A stretch of DNA of 64,000 nt. Origin: Pegea sp. RAD2-039. Taxonomy: Eukaryota; Chordata; Thaliacea; Salpida; Salpidae. This document shows, piece by piece, positions 1,833 to 48,500 of this stretch. Within the stretch, counting starts at the first letter, position 1; each line of letters starts with the position of its first letter. The DNA lies in the NCBI GenBank assembly GCA_034620365.1, contig JAQGEQ010000305.1:868001-932000 (forward strand), written 5' to 3'. Below the pieces are notes generated by a model. The model saw only the letters and a list, made by a program, of their open reading frames with translations. It was not told where the DNA came from and made no database searches. The translations under genes were made by a program, and so were the position numbers.

Positions 1833-1838
1833 TTTATT
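1833..1838 (-). terminator. MOSPD2: Poly(A) signal AATAAA overlapping the stop codon
   Basis: On the minus strand the end reads TTC AAA TAA ATC, so the TAA stop lies inside an AATAAA hexamer. If used, the 3'UTR would be only a few tens of bases. Confidence 0.5.
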
Positions 1839-2142
1839 TGAAATCGAAGCACTTGAACCTATTTTTGACTGGTTTAAATTCTTGGACACAACCATTTGAA
1901 AAGGATTGTAGTTTGGGCTGAGGACAGGCGGGCTTGGGCTTTATTTCAGGCAACTTAAATGGCCTAGTTGATGAAGTTAGTTCCAAATACTGATTACTGC
2001 AAGTTTTAGGGGTTTCTTGAGAGGTGACATACATACAAACGATCTTATATAGAGCAAAACAAATACACAATAAAGCTGCTACTTGAGTTATTACTGCTTT
2101 TAGAAACCCTCTTCTTCTAGAAGCTCTATCTTGACAACTTAG
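1834..2142 (-). other. MOSPD2: Last exon: basic stretch, membrane anchor and C-terminal tail
   Basis: After an in-phase junction (CAA|GTAAGC to TTTGTAG|CTA) this exon codes for 102 residues: a basic patch (RASRRRGFLK), a hydrophobic stretch of about 20 residues (QVAALLCICFALYKIVCMYV) and a Pro/Lys-rich tail of about 60 residues ending CFDFK. VAP and MOSPD2 are tail-anchored in the ER with almost nothing after the anchor. The long tail here would lie in the lumen if the topology is the same. Confidence 0.8.
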
Positions 2143-5100
2143 CTACAAATATAAGAAGTTGACGTCAAGGTTGCTGTCCGATTTGTGATTGGCTTACTTG
2201 ATTATTAACAACTTTGAAATCGTAGTTTTCGACAGAATTTGAACCTTCATTGAAGGTGACTTTGAATCTGAAAAATAAAAGAATCTCATTTAGTTTGTAT
2301 TTGATCCAAAGCAGTTGATCACTAACTTCTTTTTTATTGTGCATTCAGATTTTTCATTTGCCTTCCAAAAAACTTCGATGTCTCCATCAAAGAATTCCAC
2401 AGTTTGAATGAGCATCAGGAATCGATCGTTACTCACATCACATTCTAATCCGGGAGTCAAAGTAAAAGATAAAAAGGAAGAGCAACCTGCAAAGAAGATG
2501 TCAAATAAAACTCTAATTCAATGATTGAAACTAATCAATTGAAGTGGAAATCAGGGTTACCAGGTCTAATAACCCCCATACTAGGTTTGACAAAGTATTT
2601 TTCTGGTGCTGTTGTCTTCAACTTGTACATGATCATTTTTTTGTTTGGTTTTTTCGATGTGTTACGCATCACTAGATTAGTTATGTATCTACCGGAGTTT
2701 TTATCAGTATATGATTTGCGATAAACAATCACTGAAGAAGGGCTGAAGATAAAAGAACAAATTATTGAAAGTACAAATAAATGAAATTATATTTACCAAA
2801 ACTTTACTAATTTATCCAAATCATTTATATCGTCTCTTTTGCGATATCTTTCCATCTGTTCATCACTAGAATCACTACTTGCTCGAATCTCACTACATCC
2901 TTCTTCATCTGATTCTAAATCATAGTAATCGATTCGACCTCTTCCTAATTTGCATCCAGTAACTAATGTCAGCTCTTTGAAACCTCCAGGACATTCAATA
3001 TTGATAGACTCCTAGAAAAAAATTGCAAAGTTGAAATGTAATTAATTGAATACAAATGTTATCAAACCTGGTTTGATGATTTGCCATTTTTATCAAAATA
3101 AACATCAATTCTGTAAAAAAAATAATTAAATCAAACAAGCTTAAAGCAAAATGTAGAATATAGTCACGTGTGTTCGTATCTGCTGTCAGCAAATTCATGA
3201 CAATTCCAAAACTCTTTAACATTTCCATCAAAGAAGTCAACAGAATGATACATTAGAAGAAATTTATGATTTTTCAAGCTACAATCTTTGTTAGTGAGTG
3301 AAAAACTGACAGATTTCTTGCATCCTGTAACGATTACATCAACTACAAGTTGATATTTAATGTGGAAACAAACCTGGCATGATAAAACCAGTACTTGGTA
3401 TCACTCGGTACTTGTCAGGTTGGGTAGATTTGAATTTATAAATGATGATTTGTTGGCAGCTTTTGTCACTGATGTTGTTCATGTGGAATTTTGTGTCATA
3501 ATTTCCAGTTTTTTTATTTTTGTCACAAGAACAAAATCGTAGTAGTTTCGAAGGTCTAAACAAACCAAATGTTACATCAAAAAGCAAATATATGCAGTAG
3601 GTGAGAAAGAAAGTTTACTTGACTAGCAACAAGTCTCCTAGTTTGCCTGTTGTCTCATTGAAAGAACTGCCTCCGCTTCTGTGGTTGTTACTCGATTTTT
3701 TGTATTTCTGTGAATTAGAAATGTTGTTAGTTGAAAAGAAATTCAGTTTTAACATCGATGAGTTGACTGCAATGAAAGTAGTTTCTCACCTGCTTGCTGT
3801 CATCTATTTCAACACTCATACTGCAATAAAAACAAGAAATATTTAAAGTATTTCTTTTGTTGCAAAAAGGAAAATAAAAGATGTAGAAATAGGATTTACT
3901 CATGTCTAAATGTGTCTTCAGAGCATTCATTTGTCTGCCAAAATCTTGCAGCGTTACCATAAAACGATTCTAAAGGATGCAGATAGATTTCAAATCGATC
4001 TTTACCATATGAACATTTATTTTTTGGGACCAGTGACAGTTTGATTGATGTGGAACATCCTGGAAAGGTACAATTACTTTTGGAGTATTTTAGGAAAATT
4101 GAGGCTTACCAGGTTGCAGAACACCTAGAACGGGTTTTGCAAAATATTTCTTTGGTGCGTTGGTTTTGATTTTATATAAAAGAACTTTTTTATTAAATCC
4201 TTCGGTGATGTTTGTTAAATTGAGGTGGTTGATGTATCGCGGTGGTTTTTTATGTTTTATAAACTTTCTAAAAGTAATTATAGTTCCAGGGCTGTGATAA
4301 AAAACAACATTTGATATTTTACTTTTAAACCGTTTAAAATATTGAACAAATACCTGATAGCAACCATATCTTTTAAACATACTTCTTCAGTACAATCCAA
4401 ATCTTCAGAAGAACTAGAAAGATCAGATTCAAATTGATCACAATCTACTCCTTCTGCAGAAGTAACAGATTCTTTCGGGCAAACTTTTTTTCTTCTTTGA
4501 CTCCTTGACTCAAAGTATTCTCTTTTATATGATTCAAAACATTCTTTCTCTTTTTTAAGAGATTCTTTCTCCTCTTCACAAGAATTTTTCTCCTCTTCAC
4601 AAGAATCTTTCTTGTCTTCACAAGAATCTTTCTCCTCTTTACAAGAATTTTTCTCCTCTTTACAAGAATCTTTCTCCTCTTTACAAGAATCTTTCTTTTT
4701 TTCACAAGAATCTTTCTTGTCTTCAAAACAACTTTTTTTGGTATTTTCAAAACTATATTTCTTCTTATATCCAGAACAATCTTTCTCATCATCTTCACAT
4801 TGATTTCTTTGTTGATTTTTTGGCTGAAAGTTAAAAAATATGAATCAAAATTCTGCCAACTTCACAGTAACTTGATGGTGGGAATAATTTGAAACTTTTC
4901 GAGTAACAACAAACCTTTTTAATATCTTTTGGAACTTGGCTTTTATAAAAAGCAACCTTCATCCTGTTGATAAAACAAATATTCAGAATGATTCAAATAT
5001 TTCAGATCTTTTAATCTATTTTATATTTATTGTAAAATAGGAAATATTTGAAAAATCAAATTACTCGTTTTCATAAGTTGACTCGGAAAACTCATTTTTC

Positions 5101-8100
5101 TTCCAGAACTGTTCTTCATCTCCTAAGAAACGTTTCACAGACTGATAGAGGAGGAAGAATCGATCTTGATCCACAAAACATTCATTTCCTGGTATCAGTG
5201 AGATTTGTAGAGTGGTAGAACACCCTGAAAATTATCAAAGAAATTGTGAATTATTCCACACAAGAGTAATTTTCTGACCAGGGTTGATGTATCCGGTACT
5301 AGTAGTCACAGTGTATCTATCACATGAACTACACTTTAACTTGTACAGAACAACTTTCTTGTTACACCCTGAACTAGTATTAGCTAGATGTATCTTGTAA
5401 ATATAAGCTCCAGTAACTTTATCTTTTTCACATTCATTAAATGGAATAACATCAGATGGTCTGAAATTTAAAATATTCGAAATTCAAATCAACATTTTTA
5501 GCAGATTTACAACAGAAGTATTTAAAACTGAAAATAAATAAAAAATTGAATAATTCTCAGTCTACAAAATCTATAAGATCACCTGTTGATGGTGAGATCA
5601 TTTGATAACTTGGCGAAGCATTCTTCATCATCAGAAGATTCATCAGATTCAATCTCTTCATATAAATTATTTTTTCCTTCAGGTAAGTCACATCCAGTGA
5701 TCACGTTCAATGTTCTGGGATTACTTGAACAAGTATTCTGCAGTAGCTCCTGGGTGAAAAAGATCAAAGTCTCATGATTAAATTCAAAATTTTACGGATA
5801 TTTAAAAAGATTTGATTTTTTAAGTGATAAAAAACTATTTAGTTGTATGATGAGTCTGACAAGAAACTTGAAAATACAAATTGATGAATAAAAACCAACT
5901 TTTTCGTGTTCCCTTAAATCAACTTTGGTTTTGTCAAAATTGATTGTCAGCCTGTAAAAGAGGGATTCGATGTGAAATTGAAAGATATTTGTGGCTATTT
6001 CAAGCATACTTGTGTTGAAGCGTTTTTTTCGAGTACTGATTCTTACTCCAGAAGCTTTTTTCATCTCCATCAAAGCAGTCAAGAGGTTGATAAAGAAGAA
6101 AAAAGCGATCTTGATCTGTGAAAGACTCACATCCAGGAAGAAGATACAGATTGACAGATATCGAACCACCTACGATATAAATGAAGTTTATATTTATCAA
6201 ATAGAAACTGATAGAGAAGCTCACCAGGTTTGATGATTCCAGTCTTTGGTGTGGCTCGATATCTGGCAATTTTATTGGTAGTAATTTTGAAGAGAATAAT
6301 CTTTTTTGAGCTTCCGCAAGTAATATTATTCATTTGAAAATCAGAAACATATCGACCAGTTTTAGGATCTTTATTACATTTTTTAAATGTAACTTCATTT
6401 GCAGGGCTGGATTAGAAAATGATTAAAGGTTTGAAAATAAAACATTTTCAAAAAATACCCAATCATCAGTTCATCGCCTAATTTCTTCATTCCATTATCT
6501 TCACACTCAACTTCTTCGTTCTGATCACAATTATATCCAGCTGAACAAGCGAGAGTATTGGAGCTCCAGGGATTTGTAACTCGATTCTGGATTACATCGA
6601 GTTGAAAACAACTTATTTCAAATATTGCTGATTGAAATTTATAAGATGAAATAATTTTACTTTTGGTGTTAAAACTAAATATTCAAAAAACTTTTTACAA
6701 AACAAGAAATAGAAATGATATCTGAAACAAACTTTTGTATTCAAGTCTTTGTGGAAATAAACTGAAAATCTGTTTGAAAAACCAACATAAGATGAAATAT
6801 GAAGTTATAAAGACTACAACTACATACGTGTGTTCGTATCTACTTTTTGAACATTCATTACTCCTCCAGAATTCTTCGAAGTCTTCATCAAATGAAGTCA
6901 CAGGAAGAAATATAAGTAGAAAGTTATCGTTCTTAACATTACATTCATTTCCAGGAGTCAGAGATACTTTCACAGACTTTGAACATCCTGTAAATTTGTA
7001 ATCAAACTCATGAAATCATCAAGATTTATTTGATAGAAATAAATGAAGTTACCAGGTTTAATTAAACCCACTGATGGTTTGACTCGGAATTTTTCTGGTG
7101 AAGTGGTTTTGATTTTATAGACAAGTGACTTTTTAGTGCATCCTTTAGTGATGTTGGTTAACTGAAGATTTGTTGTGTATCTTCCAGTGTTGGGATCTTG
7201 TTCAGATTTTTTAAACACAATAACTTCAGGTGGACTCATCAAGAACATATCTCCCAGAATTCCAATCTCATCATCTTCATCTTTATGATCTTGATCATCT
7301 GCATCTGTCTTTTCAAAGTCTTCATCTAGTTGTTCCTGATCTTGTTCAGGAGCACATTGTCTAATTGATCGTTTATTCTGATTAAATCGAACATTTAACG
7401 AATGTTGTTCAACATTTGTAGAAGATTCAGTTTTATCCCAAAAAGTTTTCAAATCTCCATCAAATTGATCAACAGTTTGAAACATGACTCCAAACAAATC
7501 ATTGTTACATGAGAACTCATTTCCAGGTAGAAGAGAGATGGTGACTGTTTGTAAACAACCAGCCTCAATCACACCAACTTTGCATTTTACACGATACTTA
7601 TCAGGGTCACTTGTCTTTACTTTATAAACAATTAGTTTTTTATTGTCACCAGATGTCATATTATTTAGTTGAAGATCAGTTGTGTATCTTCCAGTTATCT
7701 CATTCCTTTCTGAAATATTAAAGATAATTTCTTTTCCAGGATGAATCTTAAGTAAGTTCTTGATTGTTTCCACCTCATCATTACAATAGTTCTCATCTAT
7801 GTCTTCATCTTGTTCAGAAAGTTCAGAGCTGGTGTCTTGATCTTTACAGAGATCTTTTTGTTCGGACATGTTTGAATCCGTGTCACTATCTTCTTCACCA
7901 TATTCATCATCACAATATTCTTCGAAATATTTAATGTCATCATAATCTGTGCCGATATCTTTTGGTAGTTGAGTTCCAGTCACTAATTCCAGTTTTTCTG
8001 GTTCAAATTGTGATTTATCACAGGGAAGTTTTTTGTATTTAGACTTCACATTCTTGCTTCTATCAAAATGAACACCGAGGTTGTGCTCTAATCTAGTGTC

Positions 8101-11100
8101 GCTATTTTCGTGCTTTTGCCAAAACTCATCTAAATCTTCAACTTTATCAAAAATTGGATGAAACATCAGAAGAAATTTGTTTTCTTCAACTTCACATTCG
8201 CTACCCACAGCCAAGGAAAGTTTTACAGATAAAGAACAACCTTCAAAATGAACAAATTGTATAAAAAATTATTTTAAATTGATAAAATTAAGCAGCTGAA
8301 AACAGCAAGAAGTTTATAGATTGAAATATGATGTAATTTCACCTGGGTCTACAACACCAACTATTGGACGAACTCTGTATCTTTCTGGTTCTGTACTTTT
8401 AATCTTAAACACAAAAGTTTGTTTGGAAGTTCCTTTGGTGATATTTATCAGTTGAAGATTACTGATGTATCTTCCTGTCTTTTCATCTTTAATGTTTTTG
8501 TTGAACGTCAGCACATTTGCAGGACTAAAAAAGATTCATTGATATAAAAGGGAACTTATAGGAAGTTTTAATTAGAAAATTATTTGAATTAGATCAAGAA
8601 ATACAAATCATAAGTCAAAGTTAGTTTACTTAATTATCAGAAGATCACTCAATTGACCCCTATCTTCAAAGCTGCCTTCTTTATCTTTGATTTTCTACAA
8701 AAAACAGTTTGAACCATAAAAAAAAACAGATAGAAATTGTTGTTGTTATTCATCAAGTATATATTCTACTTGTTACATATGAGTATGTAGTTGAAGTACA
8801 AATTCAACTAACTTGTTCTTGTGGTTTCGGCCCAATGTTGAGGCAAACATCATATCTAATAAAACAGAAGAGTTATAGTGAATCTTAACCTACAAGATTC
8901 CCACTTACGTTTGTTTTATAGTTTTATCAGAATCTTCATTTAATTCCCAAAACTGTTTAAGATCACCTTCAAAGCAATCAACTGCTCTAAACAGGAACAA
9001 AAATGAATCCTGAGTAGCAAAGCTCTCGAAGCCCGTCAACATACACAGTTTTACAGTTACTGTTTGACCTGCCAAAAAACACAAATTAATTTATTTAGTT
9101 GAGAAATTGTCACTGAATCCAACTGACCAGGTTTTATAAACCCACAGTTTGGTTTGACATAATATCTTTCGGGTTCATTTGATTTGATTTTATAAATGAT
9201 AAGTTTTTTGGAAGATCCTTTAGTTATGTTATTAATTACAACATCAGTTGTATAACTTCCAGTCGAGTCATCTTTTTTGTCTTTTTCGAACTCAATTACT
9301 TTTAGTGATCCACAAGAACTTCTGAAAATTTCAAATAAATATTTTCACAAAACTTTTTTTTTAAATTACATTTATATAAGAATGAGTCCTACCCTATAAT
9401 AACCATATTTTCAATCTTATTAATGTAATTAGCATCTGCTGATACTTCATCTGGTTGTAGATCACTGTAGATATTAGTTTTATCTTTAGGAAGTCTGCAT
9501 CCAGTAACAAGATGCATTTCTTTAGGTTCAAATGAATCTTTTTCACAAATAGGTTTCTGTAAGATTCAAAGAATTAAAAAATTAAATTACAAATTTCTAA
9601 ATTATCAATTTAAAGAAGAAATCTTTTAGCATCTAACCTGATCTTGCTGTTTCGAAATCTTGCTGTTGTCAAAACCTACATTGATTCTATAAAACAAACC
9701 TTCAATAAAATGCTGGGGTCAAATAGATACAACTTACATGTGCTCAAATCTGGTCTTGGAGTTTTCATTTTCACTCCAAAAGTATTCTAAGTCTCCATTG
9801 AATGTGTTGACAGTATGAAATATGAGAAGAAACTTGCTTTTGCGACAATCAAACTCATTTCCAGGACATAAAGACATCCTGATTGATGTAGAAGAGCCTG
9901 TGATGAAATGATGATTAAGATGAAGCTTCTAGTTGATCTCATATTTCACCTGATTTGATGAAACCAGTTACTTGTGAAGCACGATACAAATCTGATTGAT
10001 TACTTTTGATTTTAAAAACGATAATCTTTTTATAGCATCCTTTAGAGATATTACTTATATGAAGATTGGCCACATAGCGACCAGTGACTGGGTCAACTTC
10101 TATTCTTTTAAAGGTCAATAAATCAGAAGGGCTGAAATATTCAAAGAAGTTTTTTTTAGTTTGTTGAAAACGTCAAATGATTTGATGTACTTGATTATGA
10201 CCAAGTTGCCAAAGTTTCCGGCGTTTCTCAAATCTTCTTGGTTATCTGAAAGCTGTTTGACAAGAAATCGATTATCAAAGAAACATTTATAAAATATCGA
10301 AGATAAGTTGCTAGTAGCTACAAACCTGTTCTTGAGGTTTCGATTTGTCAGTAGTATCCAAACAAACACCTAATCTGTAATATTTTATGATTTTAAAAAC
10401 TTTATTTCTCATTTTCTCGCCTAAAATCAAGGTTTACTTACGAATGTTCTAAAGTAGAACAAGAGCTTTCATTGTTTGCCCAAAATTCTTCAATATCTGC
10501 ATCAAAATGATCTAAAGGATAATAGAGCAGAAAAAAGCGATCATTAGGTACATGACATTCGCTTCCAGGAAGAAGAGACAACTGAAGAGATTCTGAACAT
10601 CCTGTGAAACAATCAGTTGAATCATAAGGAGATTTATATTGGAGTCAGAGACCTGGCTTGATAACACCAACAGATGGTTTGACGAGATATCTACCAGGTT
10701 CACTGGATTTTATTTTGTATAAAACAAATTGTTCGTTGCAATTAGCAGTTATGTTGTTCAACTGGAGTTTTGTTAAATAATTTCCAGTCTTTTCGTCTTT
10801 GACGCATTTCTTGAATGTTATCACGTTTGAAGGGCTACAAATGTGGATTTTTTAAATAAATCCCTCAAATAAATTGGTTAATTATTTACCTGATAGAAAG
10901 TAAATTGTTTAGATTTTCTACATCAGGAGGTTTGACATCATCAAATGAAATATGCATGCTGAAATAGTATTTACGATGATATAAAGGCATGTTTACGATA
11001 TATCAACTTACCTATGCTCATAAGTGCTGCTGGAACATTCGTTTTTAAACCAAAATTCTTTTACATCAACATTAAGACAATCAACAAAATGATAAAGTAT

Positions 11101-14100
11101 CAAAAAGAGGTCTTGACTGGCTACACATTCATTTTCAGGGAGTAAAGAAAGCATCACATTGTTGTCTTCACCTGAAATTTCCCAATTTTCAGTTAATTCA
11201 TCGATTTCAACCACGATTGTGACTCACCAGGTTTAATACAACCCATATTTGGTGTGACAAAGTACCTAGAAGGCTCACTTGATTTAATTTTGTATACAAT
11301 AGACTTTCTTCCAGTGATGTTGCTCAATTGGAGATTGGTAGTATATCTACCATTTGTTTTATCTTTTAAATATTTGTTGAAAGTGATTACATTTGCTGGA
11401 CTGAAATTGAAACAAAATTTTCAAAAGTTTGAAATCAAATTGAACAGATGTTGAAAATTTAATCAAAAATTTGTTCTTTAAAAGTGATGTTGCTCTCATA
11501 GTTTTAGTTTGTTACATTATTGAATTTGTGATAATTATTAGATAACCTTAGTGATAATGCGTCTCCCAGTTTTCCAATACTAGTCGTTGAAGATTTGATA
11601 TTATTTGAGATATTTTCATCTACAACAAGTTTCTGTAACGAAGAAATTGATCAAACAATTTGATCATTTATGATAAAAAGATTTGGGATATTTTCAACAA
11701 ATTAATTTGAAATCAAATTTCTTTTTTTTTTAAATTACAATTTTTATCATAAAATAGAAACAAACAAATGAATTTAAAAAATTTAACTTTTATGGAAAAT
11801 TATTTCTAAAATTAAATTTGCAAACCTGTGTTAAGGGTTGGCATTTTCTTTCACTTTCAAATTCAATGTTTAATCTGCAAAATTAAAAACTTCAAAACCT
11901 ACAAGATTTTATGAAATTTCAATCTAACAATTTTATGAATGAATCATCAAAAAACTAATAAATCTAGAGATTATCAAAAGTGATTTTTCTGATTGTCAAA
12001 TACCTTCGTTTATATTTACTACATCTTTTCTCATTTTTCTTCCAAAATTTTTCTACATCACCATTAAAGCGTTTCAACGGGAAAAATGTGAACAAGTAAC
12101 TATCATTACGAACAGTGCATTCAGTTCCATGAACTAAATCTAACCTAATAGCTGCTGTAGCTCCTGTGATTGACAAAAGTTAAAAGGAAGAAATAAAGTT
12201 AAGACATAAAACCTGGTTTAATGACTCCAATATTTGGTCTTGCAAAATACTTTTTTACATCATTAGTTCTAATCTTATAAAGAATAAATTTCTTATCACA
12301 TCCTTCTGTGGTATTGATCATTCTTAAGTTGACACTATAGTTACCAGTTCTTGTGTCTCGGACACGTTTCTTGAATGTTATCATATTAGAAGGACTGGAA
12401 ATAAAATTGATGAAATGAAATGTGTTTAGTGTCGAATAGAAACATCTACCACATGGTCAGCATGTCTGATAATTTTTCTGAATATTCTGCATCAGTCGAT
12501 TCATCTTGAATCCCATCATTTTCATCAGAAGCACTTAATTCACTTGAATCAGATTTCTTTACTGTTTCATTTTCACATATAGTTGTATCAGAAACTTCTT
12601 TATTTACGTTTGATTCAGAACAAAAGTTTGATTTGCTTGAAGAATTATTGAAAAATATTTGTCTACATTTTGTATCGTTGTGATTCTAGAAAAATAATTA
12701 TAGTTTATCAAATCAATTAAAGAAAATATCTTTATAAGTAAATAATAAAAGAACTAACCTCATCTGTTGACATTATATTACTTCTATCAAAATAAACACT
12801 CATTCTGTGGAAGACAGTAAAAAGACTTTTAGAAATTTAACAAATTAGATAAAAATAAAAAGTTATAAAACTGATTTTAGCATGAAATAAACATCTTGAC
12901 CACATCATCAACTTACGTATGTTCCAAAGTACAACCATTTCCCTCATTTCTCTGCCAAAAATCATCTTCATCTTCATCAAATGAATCAACAGGAAAATAA
13001 AGAAGAGATAAGCTACCCTGGTTAATACTATCTTCATTTCCAGGAAGCAAAGAGACTTTAACACTAGCAGAAACACCTGCATTAAAACTAAAACTTAAAA
13101 AAATGTTTCAAAAGCCACAGATGGTGTAAACCTGGCATGATTACACCGACTTTCGGATAAACTTCATATTTGTCAGGTTCATTTGCTGTAATTTTATAAG
13201 GAATAATTTTTGTTGAGTTTCCTTCACTGATGTTATTTAGTTCAAAATTTGCAGTGTAGCTTCCAGTGTTTTCATCTTTTTCATAATTTGTAAATGTCAA
13301 TACACTGGAAGGGCTAAAAAAATGATAAGACATCATAATCTGCTCACAAATTAAGGCTGTTTTAAATTTTCTAAATTTCGCTTATTTCATTCACAGTTTT
13401 ACATTAAGTTCAAAAAGTAAAAGACAAAAAACCTTATCATAAGTAAATCTTTTTGTGTTTTTGATTCAGTTTTGATTGGAATTAAACAACTGTTAGTTTC
13501 CAGAACTTTTATCTCGGCACATTTGCTTGAAGATTCAATAATGCTACCAGCTTCGATTTTACATCCAGTTTCGAGTGTGCTCTCAGCTTCGATTGTGCTC
13601 TCAGCTTCAAATGCTGTACAGTTATTTGATGCATTTTCATTTTCCGATTTTGTAACGGCTTTACTTGATTCAGGACAATCTATAAATTTCAAAATAAATT
13701 CAAATATGTCAAAAAAACAATTCAAAAAAATTTAATGAAAGTTTATTTATTTTTGCAATAAACGAAATTTATCAAATTCAGCAGTCAACTAACTTTGTGT
13801 TTCTTTTCTTAGCTTTCCGTCATCTAGAGGAGGTAATTTATATTGCCAAGCAGCCTCCTAATAATGATAAAAAAGATTTGATTAAATGTTAGAAAACTAA
13901 CTTTGCTGCTATAACAGAAATACACAAAAATAAAATAATTTGCTACATTCAGAGAAACAAAAATATAAGTCATAACTAAAATATACAAATATGTTAAAAG
14001 ATTTTGTGTAAATCAAAAAGTTTAATTCAAAAAATTTTAATCTCGATTAGTTTGTTAGCGTCATTATTTAGATGGGAGAATCAAACAATTGATATGTTCC

Positions 14101-17100
14101 AAACTGAAAATATTTTAGAGAATAAAATGTACAAAAAAATTAATTATCAAATATTTACATAAAAGTATTAAATAAAATTACCTCTCCACCAAGAACTTTC
14201 ACGAGATGCCTATTATGAATAAATGTTGGAAGATTTTGAGCATTTGTGAACCCTAATTTGGTTTTTTGTTCCTCATTCAGCCATTTATTAACTACTTTCC
14301 AAATAGCTGAAGCATAAATAGATGGTTCATATTCTTCAATAACCTGATTACAATCTTCTTCAAAAATCTCAACATTCAAAGACTTTTTAGTAGGGTCCTC
14401 GCAATCATTTGCTATCTCAAAGTGATTACCGTTGAGGTCGTTCATAGTTTTAAAAAGTGATGTATCATCCATAATTGAAGTTACAATCACGAATACAGAT
14501 GGAAAATTTTTTTGTTTAAGATTTTTTAAGATATAATTTGTATAAATGGAAAATTTGTACAGAAATACTTTGTGAATTTGGTATTATAAACAAAAAATAC
14601 AAGTTTTCAGAAACATTTACTAACAAAATCACTAATTATTTACAAGTACAAACATACAGATGGCAAATTTAAACAGACACACTCTAAAATTAAAATTTTT
14701 AACTGATATTTGTTGTTTTCAAATTGACGTCATAATTAAATTTCTTGCAAATTATGTAGAAAATATGGCTGCTGCCAAAAAATTGTAGACTTCTCAAATA
14801 AATTTTTAAATATGTTTGCTGAAGTAAAACCAAGAATTAAAAATAGCTAAAACTCTTTTCTTATTTTTTTAAACCATAACGGAAATAAGTTTTAACTTAC
14901 ATACTTATAATTCAGAATAATAATTTTTTGAATTCCTATAAAACTTCATGCATACTTGCCATACTTGCTAATTTTGATAAGTTTTATTTATGAAAAGAAT
15001 GTTATAAAATATTTTACAAATTTTTTAAAGAAAATAGAAAAAGAAAATATTTATTATAAGTAAACCTTGTAAAAGCACGGTAACAAATAAAACTTATAAC
15101 TCTTAATCTTATAAGCATTAAAGTTTTTAGTTACAGTATTAAATAACGAGCAGATGTAAACTATACAAAGCTATCTTCACATTTCTTGCAATATTTACTT
15201 AAATATTACTTGTATGTAGCAATTTATAGCAGGATGTGTTTTATGAATACCACTTAAAGAATTTAAAAACTAAATTTTATAGCTAATAACATAATTTTTG
15301 AGAAACTATGACTTTATTTAATAACTTTTTGATATTTTAGACTAAAATTATTTTGAAAACTAAAATAATAAGCAACAAAAATATTATTTAAACACTTTAA
15401 ACATATATTTTCCAAGGCATAAAAACAATTGCTTATAAGATACTTAAAAACGTGTCAGAATAATCTAATTGATGACAACTGTCTGTCATAGATATAAATG
15501 TGTTTTATTTCATTTGGTTGTAGAAATACCATAATTTAAAGACATATTTACCGAGAAAGACAAAAATTTTCGTGTGTATGTATTTAACTGACTCTTTATT
15601 TTGGTAAGTGTTCTAAAGGAAGAGCCATGATGTTTTATTTATTTAGGTTTTCTATTTGTTTACAAGTTTCATCGTTTTAGTATTTTCTCATTTACAGTAT
15701 ATTTAAGATTACGAGAAGTTTACTTATAGAAACAAGTATTTAATATAACTAACAGTAAAAGGCTTTTCAGCATAAAATAGAATTTATATTAAATTTTACA
15801 AAATAATTATTAGGTTTGTATACAAAAGGGTTTTTAAATAATTTAATGATTAAATCATCAAACAAAGCATACATAACTTCCTTTTAATGATTTATCTGAG
15901 ATAGTAAAGAAACAAATCTTCTTCAATAGACATTTTATTAACAAAGTCATAAAAATTGGCAGTATTTAAGATTTCTGGGAATATTCTTTTTTTGAAGAAA
16001 AATTGAAGTTTGTTTCAAATGAAGGAATCCAAGAACGCAATAATGATGAATTAATAATAGTAAGAAAACATGAGTAGCTTAAAACTAAATCTAAAACATT
16101 TGCCAAAAGCTTGAAATGTCAAATGACTTGATTGAACAAATTTTTAGTTATAAAATATTTGAAAATGTTTCGGTATAAGCTCAAAAAGACTTTTTTAGTT
16201 CTATTAATCAATTAAACATAGAAGATACTCACCATTCATGATCCAGGGAAGATCATTTATCAAAATCTTTTCTGAAAAAAAGACTTTTAGTCAATTTCAA
16301 AATTACTGAAAAAATTTACGAATGTTGAAAACTTGGATTAATTTCAAATTATTGCAAAATCGTAAATATAATTTGATGATGTAATTTTCAAATGTTATTG
16401 TAATACTTATTTACAGTAAAGAATGAATCACGTGATAAAATCAAGTAGAATTTTTATGGGTGTGGGTTTGGTTAATGACATAGACCACGTGATGAAAGAA
16501 AATAATAAATTTCTCAAAAGTTTCAAACAAACAATGACTTTGCAAAAAACTATTCTTTTACTTCTTACTTTCAGTTTACTTAGTTAAAAGTTATAACAAA
16601 AACTATTTTTATTAGCTCTATGTATAAATAATCTTTAAAAGAGCCTACTCACTGAGGAGATATGGAAAATACTCGTCAAGACATTCCATAATAAAACGAA
16701 TAATTGAGATGTTAATATTACTTAAACCCGCTCCTTTTGTATCCATCAAAAGAGTTATTTGCTTACCTGGCTCATTATGTTGTAACAATTCCAGCCACAT
16801 TGCAAATACTTCCTTAAATTCTTTTATTCTTTTAGTTGAAATTTTTTTGACATGTATGTAAACTGTAAGACGGGATAAATTAAAATCGAATTTTTATGAA
16901 ATGATGAAAGACTCTGGACAATAAATTAAATCATTTAAAAATTGACTTTTATTTGAGTAATAAATCAAAAGTTTACAAGCTCATAAAAAGTAAAAACTTT
17001 TTAATAAATTCAATGTCATAAAACGTCTAAACAAATTACTAAACAATTTTTGGAAAAATAAATGCTACAATCAAGATAGGTGCTTGGAGCTATAAGCAGA

Positions 17101-17998
17101 TGAGTCTTCAGCATCTTGAACCACCAAACACAAGATTTGTTTGTAAGACAAGTTTATATTGACTTGGTGTTGTTGGTCGAGGAGTTTTTACAAGTCAAAG
17201 TGGTAAATCAACTAATCTAACCTTTTGTTGGTGTTCTACAAGCTAATTTGGTGATACTAAAAATCAAAGAATCTTAACTAGATGAGCTCACAAGATTGTG
17301 AATTTATATAAAGCAATTTCTTGTACTCACATACACGAGTTCCATCTACCGCTCTTCCTTTTACATACATGCAAGCATTTGATAATTCTTCTTGATCAAC
17401 AACATATTCATCCAAATCTGCACTGCTTGTATCAAAATATCGATCTTATGTGATCAATTAGTTACTAACTTCTGACATTATGTTGAGCTCTCCATCTTAA
17501 ACACTTAAGTGCAGCCAAGGCAGCTGCTTTGATGTTTCCTTTTTTCTGTTTGATGAAGCAAAATGCCCAGATACTGTCTTGTGTTAGGCGAGAAACATCA
17601 AGTGAGTTAAAAGAGGAAAATTGGAAATCTAAAAATTAATTCTTTTACTTTCATAGAGTTATTGAAACTAGTAATCCTCACCACTTTTATTTCTGTGATA
17701 ATATTCCAAAAAATTCTTGAAATCATCTTCTGATAAATGTAAACTTTAAAATAATAAATTACTCTAATTATTGAAGCAATTTATAAACTTGATTTAGTTT
17801 AAATATAATTAAAAGCTTGCTTAACTGAAAACATAAAGTTTCTACTAAAATATATCAAGATTCTATCACATTTAAGAAACTAAAACTTTTTTGTCACTAT
17901 GTTTAAATGAATGTTAGAATAAATATTTAAGAATATTATCCATACTTGCCGCTTTCTTTGTTGATTAGCTGCTTTTTAGAATGTTTATTGGAGAGCAT
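1834..17998 (-). CDS. MOSPD2: MOSPD2-like protein with CRAL-TRIO domain, 14 MSP domains and C-terminal membrane anchor
   Basis: Probable ER-anchored contact-site protein. MSP domains of the VAP/MOSPD2 family bind FFAT motifs of partner proteins; CRAL-TRIO folds bind lipids. The N-terminal exons 17998-17946, 17743-17682, 17628-17470, 17417-17331, 16862-16653, 16271-16233, 14306-14182, 13857-13794 and 13679-13433 join in phase to about 349 residues. They align with MOSPD2 CRAL-TRIO landmarks: LLMDTKGAGLS, then FPYLL, then INDLPWIMN, then the GG...Y.LPPL.D tail. Fourteen MSP units follow (13313-2190), each usually in three exons: one ending at the G.I.PG turn (phase 1), one ending at ..EHT (phase 2), one short. 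The last exon codes for a hydrophobic anchor. Estimated length is 2,800-3,000 residues against about 518 for human MOSPD2. ATG 17998 follows an acceptor-like TTGATAG directly. It could be annotated as several genes, but continuous phase and a single anchor argue for one. Confidence 0.88.
4354..4823 (-). repeat. MOSPD2: Linker exon with Lys/Glu/Ser/Cys heptad repeats between MSP units 11 and 12
   Basis: In the gene frame the exon (acceptor TTTCAG, donor GTATTTG) codes for a charged tract in which a 21-bp, 7-residue unit of the type K-D-S-C-K-E-E recurs about eight times (roughly 4550-4720), followed by an acidic Ser-rich stretch. The repeat is also open in other frames and on the other strand; those readings are by-products. 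It is likely a flexible or helical charged spacer. Confidence 0.8.
7053..8240 (-). other. MOSPD2: Single 1.19-kb exon spanning MSP units 7-9 (introns absent)
   Basis: This exon opens with the usual phase-1 acceptor (G|GT TGT TCT) of an MSP second exon. It then runs without interruption through the rest of unit 7, linker 7-8, all of unit 8, linker 8-9 and the first part of unit 9, ending at KPG with a GTAACT donor. The other units carry introns at each equivalent position, so about seven introns are missing here. The linkers are Asp/Glu-rich. Confidence 0.9.
14182..14472 (-). other. MOSPD2: Possible alternative first exon of the MOSPD2-like gene
   Basis: The CRAL-TRIO exon that starts at 14306 (after acceptor TTATGCTTCAG) is open in frame for a further 55 codons upstream to ATG 14472. 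The added segment is acidic and protein-like (for example NHFEIANDCEDPTKK). In DNA this AT-rich such an open run is unlikely by chance. A transcript starting here would drop most of the CRAL-TRIO domain but keep all MSP units. No promoter element is visible. Confidence 0.4.
14473..16232 (-). other. Large intron of the MOSPD2-like gene
   Basis: AT-rich intron between the INDLPWIMN exon and the AIWKVVNKW exon (the full intron is 16232-14307). I see no gene, RNA or clear repeat in it apart from the in-frame extension described separately. Confidence 0.6.
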
Positions 17999-27024: not shown

Positions 27025-29759
27025 ATGTCGTATGTTGCTCTCTTTTTTCTACATTTCATTTACTTAAATCTATAAATCAGTGACTCATAAAAGCTCAATA
27101 CAATAAAAGCTTTTGTTTTATGCCTCATATCTTAATGTTGTGATGGTTCTTATTGTTTACTAATTAATAGAAGATAATAATAAGTTAGAATGAAATAAAC
27201 AGCCGAATACTTTATTTATTTTGCTATATGCTATCTATTTATAAATTTATTATTTTAGAAATTGTCGTTTTTCAAATGAAACAATGTTTAGAAATAAAAT
27301 TATGGTATTCTAACCAAATCAACTTTTTAAGTATTTATGGTAAAAAGATATAAATTGTTAGATTATTTATTAAAAAATCATCTTATTGTAACTTACGATT
27401 ATTAAAATCTTAATTCAGAAGTTTTCTGGTTTATTTCACTTCTTTAATTTAATTATAATATTTTTTAGAAACTCTAGAGGATTAGTTACTGGATTTCTAG
27501 TGGTAGCCCAGGTCGTATTTATCATTCTTTTTGGACTTTTCACGGAGTATGACCCTAATCATACTGGCCCAAAAAATGCCTCAAATCTTGAAATCGAACA
27601 TAAGAATAAGGAAGATGAGATCTTTTATCCGAGTAATTTTGATTCGATAAATTTATTAATTAGCATGCTTGATAACATAGAAAATCGATTTAAACAATTT
27701 TCAAGTTATCGATTTTCTTGTAGTTTAAATTCTTTAAGTCTAATCATGTATACACAAAAAAGAACATTTTTGGTAATCATAAAACCTGTTTTTGCAGTGT
27801 TTCAAGATGTTCAGGTCATGTTGTTAGTTGGGTTCGGGTTTTTGATGACCTTTTTAAAGCGTAATGGATTTGGTGCCGTCGGTTTTAACTTCTTATTAAC
27901 ATCTTATGTAATTCAATGGTCATTATTAATCAATGGATGTTTTAATATGATTGGTAGCGAAACATTTGCGATTAAGCTTAGTCTAGAAAGGTTTGTTATG
28001 AAAATGAGTAATTAACCCACGTTCAAGTTTTTACAAATAATAAGATATAACCTTTAGTCATTCTTAACTCAGTAAATTTCTCTAAACATCAACTTTGAAT
28101 AGTAATAATGAACATTTTTAATAGTTTGAAAGTTAAAGTTTCTTTTCATAAACAAATTGCTGATTGTTTTTATTAGTAAATCAACAACTTGTTAATGTTT
28201 GGTTAAAAAATGTTATTTACATAAAACAAATTTTCAACCTTTCATATTTTTATTAAAATTTACTATCATTATGTTAATTACTAGAAATAGTTTTAAAAAA
28301 CTCTTATCGAGTCTTTGTTAGCTTCCTACACGCCGATTTCGCTGTGGCTGCTGTTCTTATCTCATACGGAGCTATTATTGGTGTTAGCGGGCCGGTACAA
28401 CTAATTGTTTTAGCTACTGTTGAGGTTGTGTTCTACAATATTTCCTTATATGCCACAACTCAAATCATGGTTTGTTTGAAGCAACTCAATAAGCAAATTT
28501 TAAACCATTTTTTTACACTAGGTAAGCGATGTTGGTGGTTCGATGGTTATTCATGCATTTGGTGCTTACTTTGGGCTAGGGGCATCATATGTGCTAAGTA
28601 AATTTTCACCCTACGAAAGCTCGAAAGAAGGTTCTGCTTATTACTCAGATATATTTGCTATGATTGGTAAGTTACAGAGATTTTCATAAACTGTTTCGAT
28701 ATTTAAACTCACTTTAATCAATATAAACTGTTTTTAGTTTAATAATTTTGGTATTTATATAATCTATAAATGTTTTTAATTTAGGTACTGTCTTTTTGTG
28801 GCTATTTTGGCCAAGTTTCAATGCTGGCCCAGCAACCGGTAGCGACCGTCAACGAGCCATCATCAACACAATCTTAAGTTTATCTGCTTGTACAACTGTA
28901 ACATTTGCTATGTCAGCATTAGTACACAAAAAAAATAAGTTTAGTATGGTGAGTGTTTTTACAACTTGTTTTTTTATCATTAAACTTTGTTTATACTCAA
29001 AGGTCCATGTACAAAACGCTGCGATTGCTGGTGGCGTTGCTATGGGAGCAAGCGCTGACTTTTTGGTCCAACCTTTCGGGGCTTTAATAATTGGAAGTGC
29101 TGCGGCAATTTTATCAGTTATCGGATATAATTATATTCAAGTTTGTTCTTAGCTCTATTTTTGTAAATAACTAAATAAATATTTTAATAAATTAGTGGAA
29201 ACAAAACATTTTTTTCTCTCAATTTTTAGTTTCCAAATAAGCTTTGTGATTATAATTTTTTGATAAATTCTAATAATTTACAGCCTCTGTTAGAGAAGAA
29301 GTTAGGATTACATGACACTTGCGGAGTTCATAACCTCCACGGTATGCCTGGAGTTCTAGGAGCTCTTTTCAGTGCTATATTTGCAGCCATGGCAACTGAA
29401 TCAGCTTATATGGACAGGTAAAAGTTCATTTTATCCTCAAAAAGCAAATAATTCAACTCTCTACAATTTTAGCTTTGATTCAGTGATTCGAACTGGTAGT
29501 GCTCAAAAGCAGGCAGCAGTACAAATATACTCCCTCCTAATCGTGTTAGCAATTTCAATCGGTTCTGGAATATTAACTGGACTGCTTATTTCCTTGAAAT
29601 TCTTGGACCGCTTGTCCAACTTTGAGTTGTATGAAGACACCATCTTTTGGGAGGTAAGACTTTCACTTTTGATTCATCAATTTCATAAACTTATTATCAT
29701 GACAGCTTGAAGAGGAAGAAGATAAAAAAACAGAGTTTCCACTTCAACAAGCTCCTTAA
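27025..29759 (+). CDS. Rh50: Rh-family ammonium/ammonia transporter
   Basis: Integral membrane channel of the Rh (Rh50/RhAG/RhCG) branch of the Amt/MEP/Rh family, moving NH3/NH4+ across the plasma membrane. Ten exons: 27025-27029, 27469-27632, 27798-27990, 28322-28469, 28522-28666, 28785-28948, 29003-29140, 29284-29417, 29473-29653 and 29706-29759, summing to 1,326 nt, so 441 aa with all phases matching. Diagnostic motifs are present: [32 protein letters not shown], the first pore histidine in [39 protein letters not shown] and the second pore histidine in [11 protein letters not shown]. The first exon holds only ATG TC. The N-terminal extracellular loop is charged (about residues 25-55) and carries potential N-glycosylation. 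It appears intact. Confidence 0.95.
27633..27797 (+). other. Stop-free, in-frame second intron of the Rh gene
   Basis: 165 bases (55 codons) with GT...GCAG ends and no stop in the gene frame. Splicing it restores YPMFQDVQVM, the family consensus. If retained it would add 55 residues to the first extracellular loop without breaking the frame. Confidence 0.7.
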
Positions 29760-45515: not shown

Positions 45516-48500
45516 ATGAAAAGAAGGTAAATAAATATCATTGTTCTTGAAATTGAAATTGAAATATTTTTATATTTGTTTTTTCATCTCATAAAACTTA
45601 TGGTTTATTTTGATTTAAAAATTATTTTTATAACCACAAAGATAACTACAAAATCTTAGAAAATTAGATCTTATAACTTTTGATAAAATCTCATGATATT
45701 AGCTAAAAGTTAATTTCTTTCTCAGCAGCTTATTTACTTTTGATCTCTAAGAAACTATTCTTAAAACATCTAAAGTTATTTTTTAATCATCTGACTTCAG
45801 ATCTTCATCACCTTACGGTCAAAGATCTCGATGTCCTCTTCCTTCAGCATCTCGTTACCATCCAAGAAACTCTCAGCCATCATATCAAAACAAAATTGTT
45901 GGTAATTTAGCAAATTTTCTGACTGAATGTAACCTCTTTAACTTGTAGGATCGATCTACTTGGCGTCGGTCACATGATTCTTCTTCAAGACAATCTGATT
46001 ATTATTTGAGTAATTCGAAATATAAGGTCCTTATCACTTAGATGTTGCTTAAACTCAACAAATCCTATTTTTTAGGGTTCATTGCCAAGAAGTTATCAAG
46101 GAAGATATTCAAATGAAAGACGATCTTATAATCGTTTGAAAAGAGTTCATCCTGAATCAGGCAAGTTTTTGTGTAACAAAATCCTCTAATATTATCAAAA
46201 CTAACCATCAAAGTGACTTTGTGATAAGAATTAAACATTTTATGAAAACTGATTAATTAACGAACAAAGAAAGACTTAATACAAACAAATCTTCGTTTGG
46301 TGGTCGAAGGTGTTGTTACAAATATACAACTTCTGTTTTGTTAATTACTATTTTCTGGTTACATCACCTTACAGCTAACTCATTACTTCCGTTCTGTTAA
46401 CTTTTGTATGATTCTGTTTTCAATTTAATATCACTTCGTTGATTTTCAACGATTTGATTGGTTAACAGAAGCTATTGTGTTTATTCCTTTCAACATAATT
46501 GTGTAGCTTACCACAATGTATCTACAGAATCTATATCTTCAAGACACTGTAGAAGCCCTTCTGTTAAGAGAAGTCGTAAAGACCGGCACTCACTTCGTTA
46601 TACTCGAAGTAGAAACCGGAGCTGTAGAACCGGAAGCTGTAGAAGTCGAAGCTGTAGAAGCCGAAGCTGTAGAAGCCGAAGCTGTAGAAGCCGAAGCTGT
46701 AGAAGCCGAAGCTGTAGAAGTCGAAGCTGTAGAAGCCGAAGCTGTAGAAGCCGAAGCTGTAGAAGCCGAAGTAGATCTTCTAGAACCCGAAGTAGATCTT
46801 CTAGAACCCGAAGTAGATCTTCTAGAACCCGAAGTAGATCTTCTAGAACCCGAAGTAGATCTTCTAGAACCCGAAGTTCTAGAAGTAGAAGTTCTAGAAG
46901 TATAAGCTCTATATCAAGCTGTGGTGATGACTACAAATCCATTAAACTTGAAGATAGTTCGTCAGTGCATAGTTTATCTTCAATATCAGGTTTGAACTTT
47001 TTGACAATTTGAAAGTTTTTCAATTTCATCTTTCTGCAGATTCATGTTCAGACGATCAACAAGTAAATAAATTCTTATACAAATTTCATCAGTCGATTAT
47101 TTTTCTATTGAAAAAAACTTTCTAATGTTTTCAGAATTTAGATATTCTACGAAATAATGCTTTGAACACGATGAAAGACTTCAAGTTTAATCTTGGTAGT
47201 ATGATGTTAACAATTTGATTTTATAAAAACTCTTTGACTTGTTCAGAGTTAGAAGACGGAGAAATAATTGATATCCCAAAAAAGAAGACTAGTGTGTTCG
47301 ATGACAAAACCGAAAGTTTAAATGGGGTTTACTGTCTTTCTCATTTAAAGGTGGATGGGATAAAGAGCAACATTATTGGGGAAAGTTTAGCTCCTGCTTA
47401 CAACAACTTATTGACTAAAAATATGGAACATTATTTCGTTACAAAGAAAAAGCATTCCTGTTGTGAAATGGAAAAACTATTATCAAAGACGAAGATAGAT
47501 TGTAAAAATCTACCCCAATCTACCCAAGGGTCATCTGGATATCCTTCATTACTGACTTGTCTAAAAGAGGAACCGCAAGCTGATGGAGAGGAAGATGAGT
47601 CTGTGATGCTGCAGGAGAAATTGGATGATCTTGGTATAGGTATTTCGTCAAGAATTAAAAGTTATAAGAAATGCAAGAAGTAAGAAATAGTTGACTATCA
47701 TTAAATTGCTTCTATCAAATTTTCTTTTAAAGAGCAATGCAAATTTACTACAATAGAGCACTAATACACAAGTTGGAAATTATAAAGATGACCAAAATCA
47801 TGGAAATAACTCAAGGAAGATTAGAAATAGTTGAGAGTAATAAGAAAGTAAACCACCTGCACCTCATCACCCACTATTTGTAACCAGTTATTTTTCATCT
47901 TGCAGAAAACTTCTGGTGCAACAACAACCATCTCAAAACCATCTTCTAGTGCACCAACAACCATTTCAAAACCATCTTCTAGTGCAACAAAAGCCATCAC
48001 TTCTGGTGCAACAACAACCATCTCAAAACCATCTTCTGGTGCAACAACAACCATCTCAAAACCATCTTCTAGTGCAACAACAACCATATCAAAACCATCT
48101 TCTGGTGCAACAAAAGCCATCACTTCTGGTGCAACAACAACCAGCTCAAAACCATCTTCTGGTGCAACAACAACCATCTCAAAACCATCTTCTAGTGCAA
48201 AGACAACCATCTCAGAACCATCTTTTATTGCAACAAAAGCCATCACTTCTGGTGCACCAACAACCATCTCAAAACCATCTTCTAGTGCAACAAAAGCCAT
48301 CACTTCTGGTGCAACAACAACCAGCTCAAAACCATCTTCTGGTGCAACAACAACCAGCTCAAAACCATCTTCTGGTGCAACAACAACCAGCTCAAAACCA
48401 TCTTCTGGTGCAACAACAACCATCTCAAAACCATCTTCTAGTGCAAAGACAACCATCTCAGAACCATCTTTTAGTGCAACAAAAGCCATCACTTCTGGTG

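What the first reader, a model, noticed from the sequence alone, without database searches (positions are those of the whole stretch)
1834..17998. A MOSPD2-like protein with 14 MSP domains in one chain
Known VAP/MOSPD proteins carry one MSP domain each and reach higher valency by dimerising. Here one gene codes for an intact CRAL-TRIO domain, 14 successive MSP domains and one membrane anchor. If expressed as one chain it would be a lipid-binding, ER-anchored scaffold that can hold many FFAT-motif partners at once, or span an unusually wide contact site. I know of no described animal protein with this layout.
Basis: partly seen in the sequence, partly recalled or inferred. Interest (0 to 1): 0.88.

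Follow-up and report, generated by a model that had tools for sequence, protein, structure and literature searches.

The report
MOSPD2-type protein with fourteen MSP domains
One animal gene, probably from a sea squirt or a relative, encodes a lipid-pocket domain, fourteen copies of a peptide-reading domain and one membrane anchor, where the known protein of this kind has a single copy, so it may gather several partners at one membrane contact site.

Summary
On the minus strand, 17998-1834, a 57-exon model with GT-AG introns gives an open 2,971-residue frame: a full CRAL-TRIO domain (95.6 bits), 14 MSP domains (14 of 14 above Pfam's cut-off) and one C-terminal membrane helix. Units are 27-54% identical, so this is no assembly repeat. 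Exon phases repeat uniformly. One 1,188-nt exon fuses half of unit 7, all of unit 8, half of unit 9 and both linkers; an unnamed relative carries that segment at 89% identity. New: the same genome holds a second MOSPD2-like gene with one MSP and a truncated CRAL-TRIO. Both genes share an open stretch upstream that suggests an alternative first exon, hence possibly a form without the lipid pocket. FFAT-contact residues are uneven: the K50 equivalent is kept in 14 of 14 units, four key positions together in 6, the whole F2-pocket set only in unit 14. By sequence the units match VAPA and MOSPD2 about equally; the MOSPD2 label rests on architecture and fold. A GH6 gene suggests a tunicate. No transcript was seen. 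New variant of a known kind.

The parts
1834..17998 (-). whole gene from proposed start codon to stop; 57 exons, 2,971 aa
   Evidence: spliced frame without stops, 56 GT-AG introns
14182..17417 (-). exons coding for the CRAL-TRIO domain (17417-17331, 16862-16653, 16271-16233, 14306-14182); preceded by less certain N-terminal exons 17998-17946, 17743-17682, 17628-17470
   Evidence: Pfam CRAL_TRIO 95.6 bits, residues 105-244, profile 3-153/153; the one PDB sequence match is yeast CSR1 7WVT, E 3.4e-15
14182..14472 (-). probable alternative first exon (ATG at 14472) that would give a form lacking the N-terminal two thirds of CRAL-TRIO
   Evidence: open frame upstream of the N7 acceptor; MDD start, similar length and YEPS motif shared with the C132 paralogue; inferred, no transcript
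12917..13313 (-). MSP unit 1 (exons 13313-13132, 13076-12917)
   Evidence: Pfam 32.9 bits
12004..12394 (-). MSP unit 2
   Evidence: Pfam 37.4 bits
11012..11400 (-). MSP unit 3
   Evidence: Pfam 53.1 bits
10442..10834 (-). MSP unit 4
   Evidence: Pfam 43.9 bits
9738..10131 (-). MSP unit 5
   Evidence: Pfam 38.3 bits
8909..9321 (-). MSP unit 6
   Evidence: Pfam 49.6 bits
8083..8524 (-). MSP unit 7 (exon 8524-8343 plus the start of the fused exon)
   Evidence: Pfam 55.6 bits
7402..7743 (-). MSP unit 8, wholly inside the fused exon
   Evidence: Pfam 41.6 bits; modest AlphaFold model (pLDDT 68) whose three best Foldseek matches are human MOSPD2 MSP chains
7053..8240 (-). fused 1,188-nt exon: 7B, linker, 8A-8B, linker, 9A in one open frame
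   Evidence: direct reading; P0001 89% identical over 99%, apparently genomic
6828..7236 (-). MSP unit 9 (end of fused exon plus exon 6987-6828)
   Evidence: Pfam 68.2 bits
6010..6406 (-). MSP unit 10
   Evidence: Pfam 36.9 bits
5065..5460 (-). MSP unit 11
   Evidence: Pfam 39.8 bits
4354..4823 (-). long linker exon with about ten 7-residue repeats of the type KEEKDSC (21-nt period)
   Evidence: direct repeats D3; exon 11D
3900..4291 (-). MSP unit 12
   Evidence: Pfam 47.1 bits
3168..3555 (-). MSP unit 13
   Evidence: Pfam 42.3 bits
2327..2742 (-). MSP unit 14, the membrane-proximal unit, with the most complete FFAT-contact set
   Evidence: Pfam 48.5 bits; pocket table
1834..2142 (-). last exon: basic stretch, single membrane helix, 63-aa C-terminal tail, stop
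   Evidence: hydropathy peak 2.32 at residue 2890; tail length

Best explanation
A MOSPD2-type gene whose MSP cassette was multiplied to 14 by old in-frame internal duplication. Shown: the reading frame, the domains, the phase-2/phase-2 cassettes, and conservation of part of the array in a relative. Inferred: it is made as one ER-anchored chain with the CRAL-TRIO domain and the MSP units in the cytosol, as in MOSPD2. Inferred: it acts as a polyvalent tether, with near-canonical FFAT reading in some units (4, 5, 7, 11, 13 and above all 14), while the others have drifted to other peptides or to spacing. Because each cassette keeps the frame, skipping whole cassettes could vary valency. The CRAL-TRIO domain would bind a lipid in the long form, and a second promoter may make a form without it.
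For: Open 57-exon model; CRAL-TRIO and 14 of 14 MSP above cut-off; phases of the separate A, B, C, D exons uniform in 12 of 12, 12 of 12, 11 of 11 and 10 of 10; fused exon carries two unit-unit junctions in one frame; P0001 keeps it at 89% with the linkers at 102/113 and 42/55; three best Foldseek matches of unit 8 are human MOSPD2 MSP; a single-MSP paralogue with A and B exons of the same kind and an identical 10-residue linker end GKLGDLLLVK in the same genome; one strong membrane-helix candidate only, with basic residues on its N side.
Against: No cDNA or protein evidence. The shared stretch upstream of 14306 argues that part of the product may start at 14472. Position 94 is basic in 8 of 14 units, 125 in 3, N64 kept in 3, T54 is T in 4, so polyvalent FFAT binding is not established. 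By sequence the units are not closer to MOSPD2 than to VAP: the profile of 14 ranks VAPA first (2RR3, 1.9e-11) and MOSPD2 seventh (6TQU, 3.2e-10). The tree of units is unresolved. The unit 8 model is modest and no Foldseek match passes E 0.001. No full-length relative was found.
Confidence: 0.66

Rival explanations
1. Two overlapping products from one locus: the main product of the array starts at the alternative first exon (14472) and lacks a complete CRAL-TRIO, so it is a poly-MSP tether rather than a lipid-binding one; the full CRAL-TRIO form is minor.
For: The MDD start, similar spacing and YEPS motif before the shared IWK sequence occur in both paralogues. In C132, tblastn found no match to residues 1-199 of the model in the fetched 11.5 kb upstream. 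A 1,926-nt intron, the longest of 56, precedes the exon in the array gene.
Against: The N5-N6-N7 junctions restore a full-length CRAL-TRIO profile match of 95.6 bits with GT-AG splice sites, which suggests that the long form is still maintained.
Confidence: 0.3
2. Several neighbouring genes: tandem single-MSP or few-MSP genes that only look continuous.
For: No transcript is available; introns up to 193 nt within the array could in principle hide ends.
Against: Fused exon across units 7-9, uniform phases and 33 of 47 introns within the array under 80 nt, no strong membrane helix except at the end, linkers conserved in a relative.
Confidence: 0.05
3. A structural spacer: the MSP units have mostly lost peptide binding and serve as beads that lengthen the tether, only unit 14 acting as FFAT reader.
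For: Only unit 14 keeps K52, T54, basic 94, hydrophobic 96 and basic 125 together; the 13 linkers between units add 771 residues.
Against: The K50 equivalent is invariant in 14 of 14 units and K52 is K or R in 12 of 14, more than a mere spacer would seem to need.
Confidence: 0.22

Closest known systems
MOSPD2 (human; MSP structures 6TQS, 6TQT, 6TQU)
   Same: CRAL-TRIO plus MSP plus membrane anchor; best Foldseek matches of unit 8; top PDB sequence match of unit 9, 6TQU at 3.4e-8, though VAPA 2RR3 is level at 4e-8.
   Different: One MSP domain in MOSPD2, 14 here; 63-aa tail after the helix; long linkers.
VAPA/VAPB
   Same: MSP domain with the K-x-K-T/S-T/S FFAT-contact strand; the 14-unit profile ranks VAPA first among solved structures.
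   Different: One MSP, coiled coil, no CRAL-TRIO; a VAP-like gene of its own is in the same genome on C60 (reading).
Single-MSP MOSPD2-like paralogue on contig C132 of the same genome
   Same: CRAL-TRIO end exon, linker end GKLGDLLLVK, A and B exons, membrane-helix exon; MSP 45.0 bits.
   Different: One MSP, a 464-codon open linker frame with SDVNKN repeats, no upstream CRAL-TRIO exons found.
Multi-PDZ scaffolds such as MPDZ/MUPP1 (recalled)
   Same: Works alike: many copies of one peptide-reading domain in one chain, each free to change specificity.
   Different: Unrelated domain; not ER-anchored, no lipid pocket.
HYDIN (recalled; weak PDB match 9IJJ)
   Same: Long chain of many MSP/ASH-like immunoglobulin-type domains.
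   Different: Ciliary protein, different domain subfamily, no CRAL-TRIO; units here score best with PF00635.

Membership tests
MOSPD2 | N-terminal CRAL-TRIO domain | tested here: met
   Pfam 95.6 bits, full profile
MOSPD2 | MSP domain C-terminal of CRAL-TRIO | tested here: met
   14 of 14 units above Pfam cut-off
MOSPD2 | one MSP domain, as in described members | tested here: not met
   14 units; hence 'variant', not ordinary member
MOSPD2 | single C-terminal membrane helix | tested here: met
   only one strong hydropathy peak, at residue 2890 of 2971; topology itself not shown
MOSPD2 | FFAT-contact residues in the MSP domain | tested here: inconclusive
   F2-pocket set in unit 14, four key positions in 6 of 14, K50 equivalent in 14 of 14, N64 in 3 of 14
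MOSPD2 | MSP sequence closer to MOSPD2 than to VAP | tested here: inconclusive
   unit 9: MOSPD2 3.4e-8, VAPA 4e-8; 14-unit profile ranks VAPA above MOSPD2; Foldseek ranks MOSPD2 first; 17-row tree unresolved, 0 of 14 inner branches starred
MOSPD2 | ER residence and FFAT binding | not testable with these tools
   needs experiment
VAPA/VAPB | single MSP, tail anchor, no CRAL-TRIO | tested here: not met
   CRAL-TRIO present, 14 MSP
Tunicate origin of the genome (indicator, not a definition) | GH6 gene, reported in tunicates as part of CesA and as GH6-1 | tested here: inconclusive
   GH6 exon on C14 with 35.0 bits, a second exon at 21.9, below the cut-off of 27; PMC7464555 abstract; that other animals lack GH6 is recalled; cellulose synthase search not answered

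The most novel reading that the evidence does not exclude
The gene makes a single-chain, ER-anchored contact-site integrator: 14 MSP pockets of diverged specificity read different FFAT, phospho-FFAT or FFNT partners at once, valency is tuned by frame-neutral cassette skipping, and a second promoter switches the lipid pocket on or off.
Probability: 0.3. Interest if true: 0.82.

Novelty: new variant of a known kind. Interest (0 to 1): 0.64.

Why it matters
VAP-family tethers are understood as one-pocket proteins that gain valency by pairing. A natural chain with 14 pockets, beside a one-pocket sister gene in the same genome, would let one ask what valency does at membrane contact sites, and how FFAT specificity evolves within one gene. 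It would also test whether MOSPD2's lipid domain is needed for tethering, because a form without it seems to be encoded.

Tried and rejected
Tandem separate genes: rejected, because of the fused exon and uniform phases. Assembly duplication: rejected, units only 27-54% identical, mean 41%. FFAT-like motifs in the linkers: 7 loose cores against a mean of 3.7 in 500 shuffles, 31 of 500 shuffles reaching 7, one strict core DYYDLES after unit 13: not convincing. Order of duplication: unresolved star tree. Searches of the 5.8 billion proteins with the full length and with CRAL-TRIO plus unit 1: 2,971 and 6,284 candidates, none at E 0.001; the word filter would miss distant relatives, so this says little about other animals. 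Rfam: no match in the window at gathering scores. COX1 in the assembly: none. A first alignment for structure prediction put the B exons in the wrong place and was replaced by one with A exons only.

Literature: 6 phrases such as 'tandem MSP domains' gave 1 paper, and its passage speaks of two MSP domains in a VAP dimer. Searches with MOSPD2 plus other terms listed no title or abstract start that describes such an array; I saw listings only. In PMC7610837 I read passages, in PMC7464555 abstract and outline, in PMC7337526 and PMC9917868 passages.
Full report
WHAT IS THERE. The window lies in a 105.7-Mb assembly of 387 contigs, at C12:868001-932000. Mechanical ORFs show alternating minus-strand frames with MSP-like sequence between 2.3 and 13.4 kb, and direct-repeat families with up to 12 copies. 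I built a spliced model: first a small Viterbi gene finder with codon and splice-site scores, trained on the MSP frames (62 exons), then correction by hand on the printed sequence. The final model has 57 exons and 56 introns, all GT-AG, from 17998 to 1834, and an open frame of 2,971 residues. Of the 57 exons, 43 are unchanged from the gene finder; 14 were set by hand (N1-N4, N7, seven C or D linker exons, exon 12B and the last exon). The gene finder's own ends lay further out on both sides and were dropped.

DOMAINS. Pfam finds CRAL_TRIO at residues 105-244 with 95.6 bits over profile positions 3-153 of 153. All 14 units exceed the Motile_Sperm cut-off of 25.9 bits: 32.9, 37.4, 53.1, 43.9, 38.3, 49.6, 55.6 and 41.6, 68.2, 36.9, 39.8, 47.1, 42.3, 48.5. 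The last exon has the only strong hydrophobic segment and a 63-residue tail. A profile of the 14 units finds 18 distinct PDB sequences, VAPA first (1.9e-11), MOSPD2 6TQU at 3.2e-10, Scs2 at 2.2e-7. Unit 9 alone matches MOSPD2 6TQU at 3.4e-8 and VAPA 2RR3 at 4e-8. So sequence does not separate MOSPD2 from VAP. Unit 8 was modelled from window sequences only (mean pLDDT 68.3, pTM 0.55). Its three best Foldseek matches are human MOSPD2 MSP chains, probability 1.00, TM 0.55-0.58, E 1.3e-3 to 1.6e-3; none passes E 0.001, and the model is modest. The MOSPD2 label rests on the CRAL-TRIO, MSP, anchor layout, helped by the fold ranking.

WHY ONE CHAIN. (1) Exon 8240-7053 is a single open frame holding the second half of unit 7, a linker, all of unit 8, a linker and the first half of unit 9. 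(2) The cassette is uniform: 12 of 12 separate A exons run from phase 2 to 1 (10 are 182 nt), 12 of 12 B exons 1 to 2 (11 are 160 nt), 11 of 11 C exons 2 to 0, and 10 of 10 D linkers 0 to 2. The cassettes therefore begin and end in phase 2 and could be duplicated or skipped without loss of frame. (3) The 47 introns from unit 1 to the last exon are 49-193 nt, 33 of them under 80. (4) No unit but the last is followed by a strong membrane-helix candidate. (5) A search of 5.8 billion proteins with the fused exon returned two sequences. P0001 is 395 aa, 89% identical over 99%, source ENA, contig length 1,939. It starts inside unit 7's B part and ends PGKFS where ours reads PGNFI into the intron after the 9A donor. 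I read it as a genomic ORF of a related organism with the same exon fusion. Identity by region is 41/48 for 7B, 102/113 for linker 7-8, 107/114 for unit 8, 42/55 for linker 8-9 and 57/61 for 9A, without a gap. The second hit, P0002, is a weak nematode MSP protein (E 5.5e-3).

AGE OF THE ARRAY. Units are 27-54% identical, mean 41%. A 17-row tree with the C132 MSP, the C60 VAP and P0002 has no supported inner branch, 0 of 14, and its bootstrap had not settled. The expansion is old or the units changed fast; recent tandem copying and assembly artefact are unlikely.

RELATIVES IN THE SAME GENOME. A Motile_Sperm search, exon by exon, gave 12 matches: 10 in this array, one on C60 and one on C132. 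A search with unit 9 gave 28: 27 on C12 and one on C132. C60 reads as a classical VAP (my reading). C132 holds a second MOSPD2-like gene: a CRAL-TRIO end exon, a 464-codon open linker frame with SDVNKN repeats, one A exon, one B exon and a membrane-helix exon. Its linker ends in GKLGDLLLVK, identical over 10 residues to linker 12 of the array. Its MSP scores 45.0 bits. In the 11.5 kb fetched upstream, tblastn at E up to 10 found no match to residues 1-199 of the array protein. The CRAL_TRIO search gave 9 matches; 8 lie on contigs without a Motile_Sperm match and one is this gene; the C132 end exon was not among them.

AN ALTERNATIVE START. Just upstream of the last CRAL-TRIO exon, both genes have an open stretch beginning MDD and containing YEPS before the shared IWK sequence (56 and 52 residues before IWK). 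In the array gene this starts at 14472, after the 1,926-nt intron. C132 seems to have only this form. I infer an alternative first exon giving a chain without a complete CRAL-TRIO. The long form remains likely, because splicing of exons N5-N6-N7 restores the full domain profile.

POCKETS. The review PMC7610837 (passages) lists VAPA contacts: F2 pocket K52, T54, K94, M96, K125; A5 pocket V51, T53, V61, N64, F95; phospho-serine K50 and K52. Mapped on the 14 units: K50 is K in 14 of 14; K52 is K or R in 12; T54 is T in 4 and S in 4; V61 is V in 10; N64 is N in 3; position 94 is basic in 8; F95 is F in 12; 96 is L or F in 11; 125 is basic in 3. K52, basic 94, F95 and hydrophobic 96 together (my choice of four) occur in units 4, 5, 7, 11, 13 and 14. 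Only unit 14, next to the membrane, has T54 and a basic 125 as well; it has S at 64. The prediction is a mixed array: some near-canonical FFAT readers and several altered pockets. The mapping rests on alignment and partly on recalled numbering.

MECHANISM. Best reading: an ER-anchored MOSPD2 variant that gathers several FFAT-bearing partners through some of its pockets, with linkers between units (13, together 771 residues; acidic excess in 11 of 13) that would let it reach across a wide gap, and a CRAL-TRIO lipid site in the long form. Shown: frame, domains, cassette design, partial conservation. Inferred: expression as one chain, topology, binding and tethering.

WHICH ORGANISM. The tools name none. 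The genome has 71 homeodomain matches, with Cdx-like, posterior-Hox-like and Hox4-like sequences by my reading, so probably a bilaterian. It has a GH6 gene on C14 (35.0 bits for one exon, 21.9 for another). GH6 is reported in tunicates as part of CesA and as GH6-1 (PMC7464555, abstract); that other animals lack it is recalled. A tunicate is therefore likely, not shown; the cellulose synthase search did not complete.

NOVELTY. The VAP review speaks of an MSP domain per protein, with MOSPD2 the only member with a CRAL-TRIO domain (PMC7610837 passages). The phrase search for multiple or tandem MSP domains found one paper, on a VAP dimer. The full-length search found no relative, but its word filter would miss distant ones, and named tunicate genomes could not be searched here. 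I rate it a new variant of a known kind.

Noticed in passing
L018 (C132:89000-98000), minus strand about 7004-2800: Second MOSPD2-like gene with one MSP, a 464-codon SDVNKN-repeat linker frame and a Cys-rich tail after its membrane helix; upstream CRAL-TRIO exons not found.
   Followed up: yes
window 4512-4757: 21-nt tandem repeat coding for about ten KEEKDSC-type heptads, nearly all with a cysteine, in linker 11; could be a coiled or crosslinking segment.
   Followed up: no
linkers after units 5, 7, 10, 13 and the C132 linker: Loose shared linker motif of the form VTGCxLPKDxxxxYxDxxSDE in 4 of the 13 linkers between units and, more weakly, in the paralogue; seen by eye, function unknown.
   Followed up: partly
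L053 (C14:74494-74718): GH6 glycosyl hydrolase exons (35.0 and 21.9 bits) downstream of a hydrophobic open frame; points to a tunicate genome.
   Followed up: partly
window 47844-50773: Very long low-complexity open frame ([15 protein letters not shown] repeats, 973 codons) with strong GC skew, ending in a CCCH-type zinc-finger-like motif; reading from sequence only.
   Followed up: no
window 27392-29152: Frames that read like an Rh-type ammonium transporter (recalled resemblance, not tested).
   Followed up: no
G000 C44:190952-193963: Four homeodomain matches within about 3 kb, three of them in long open frames (835, 835 and 915 codons), perhaps one multi-homeodomain gene.
   Followed up: no
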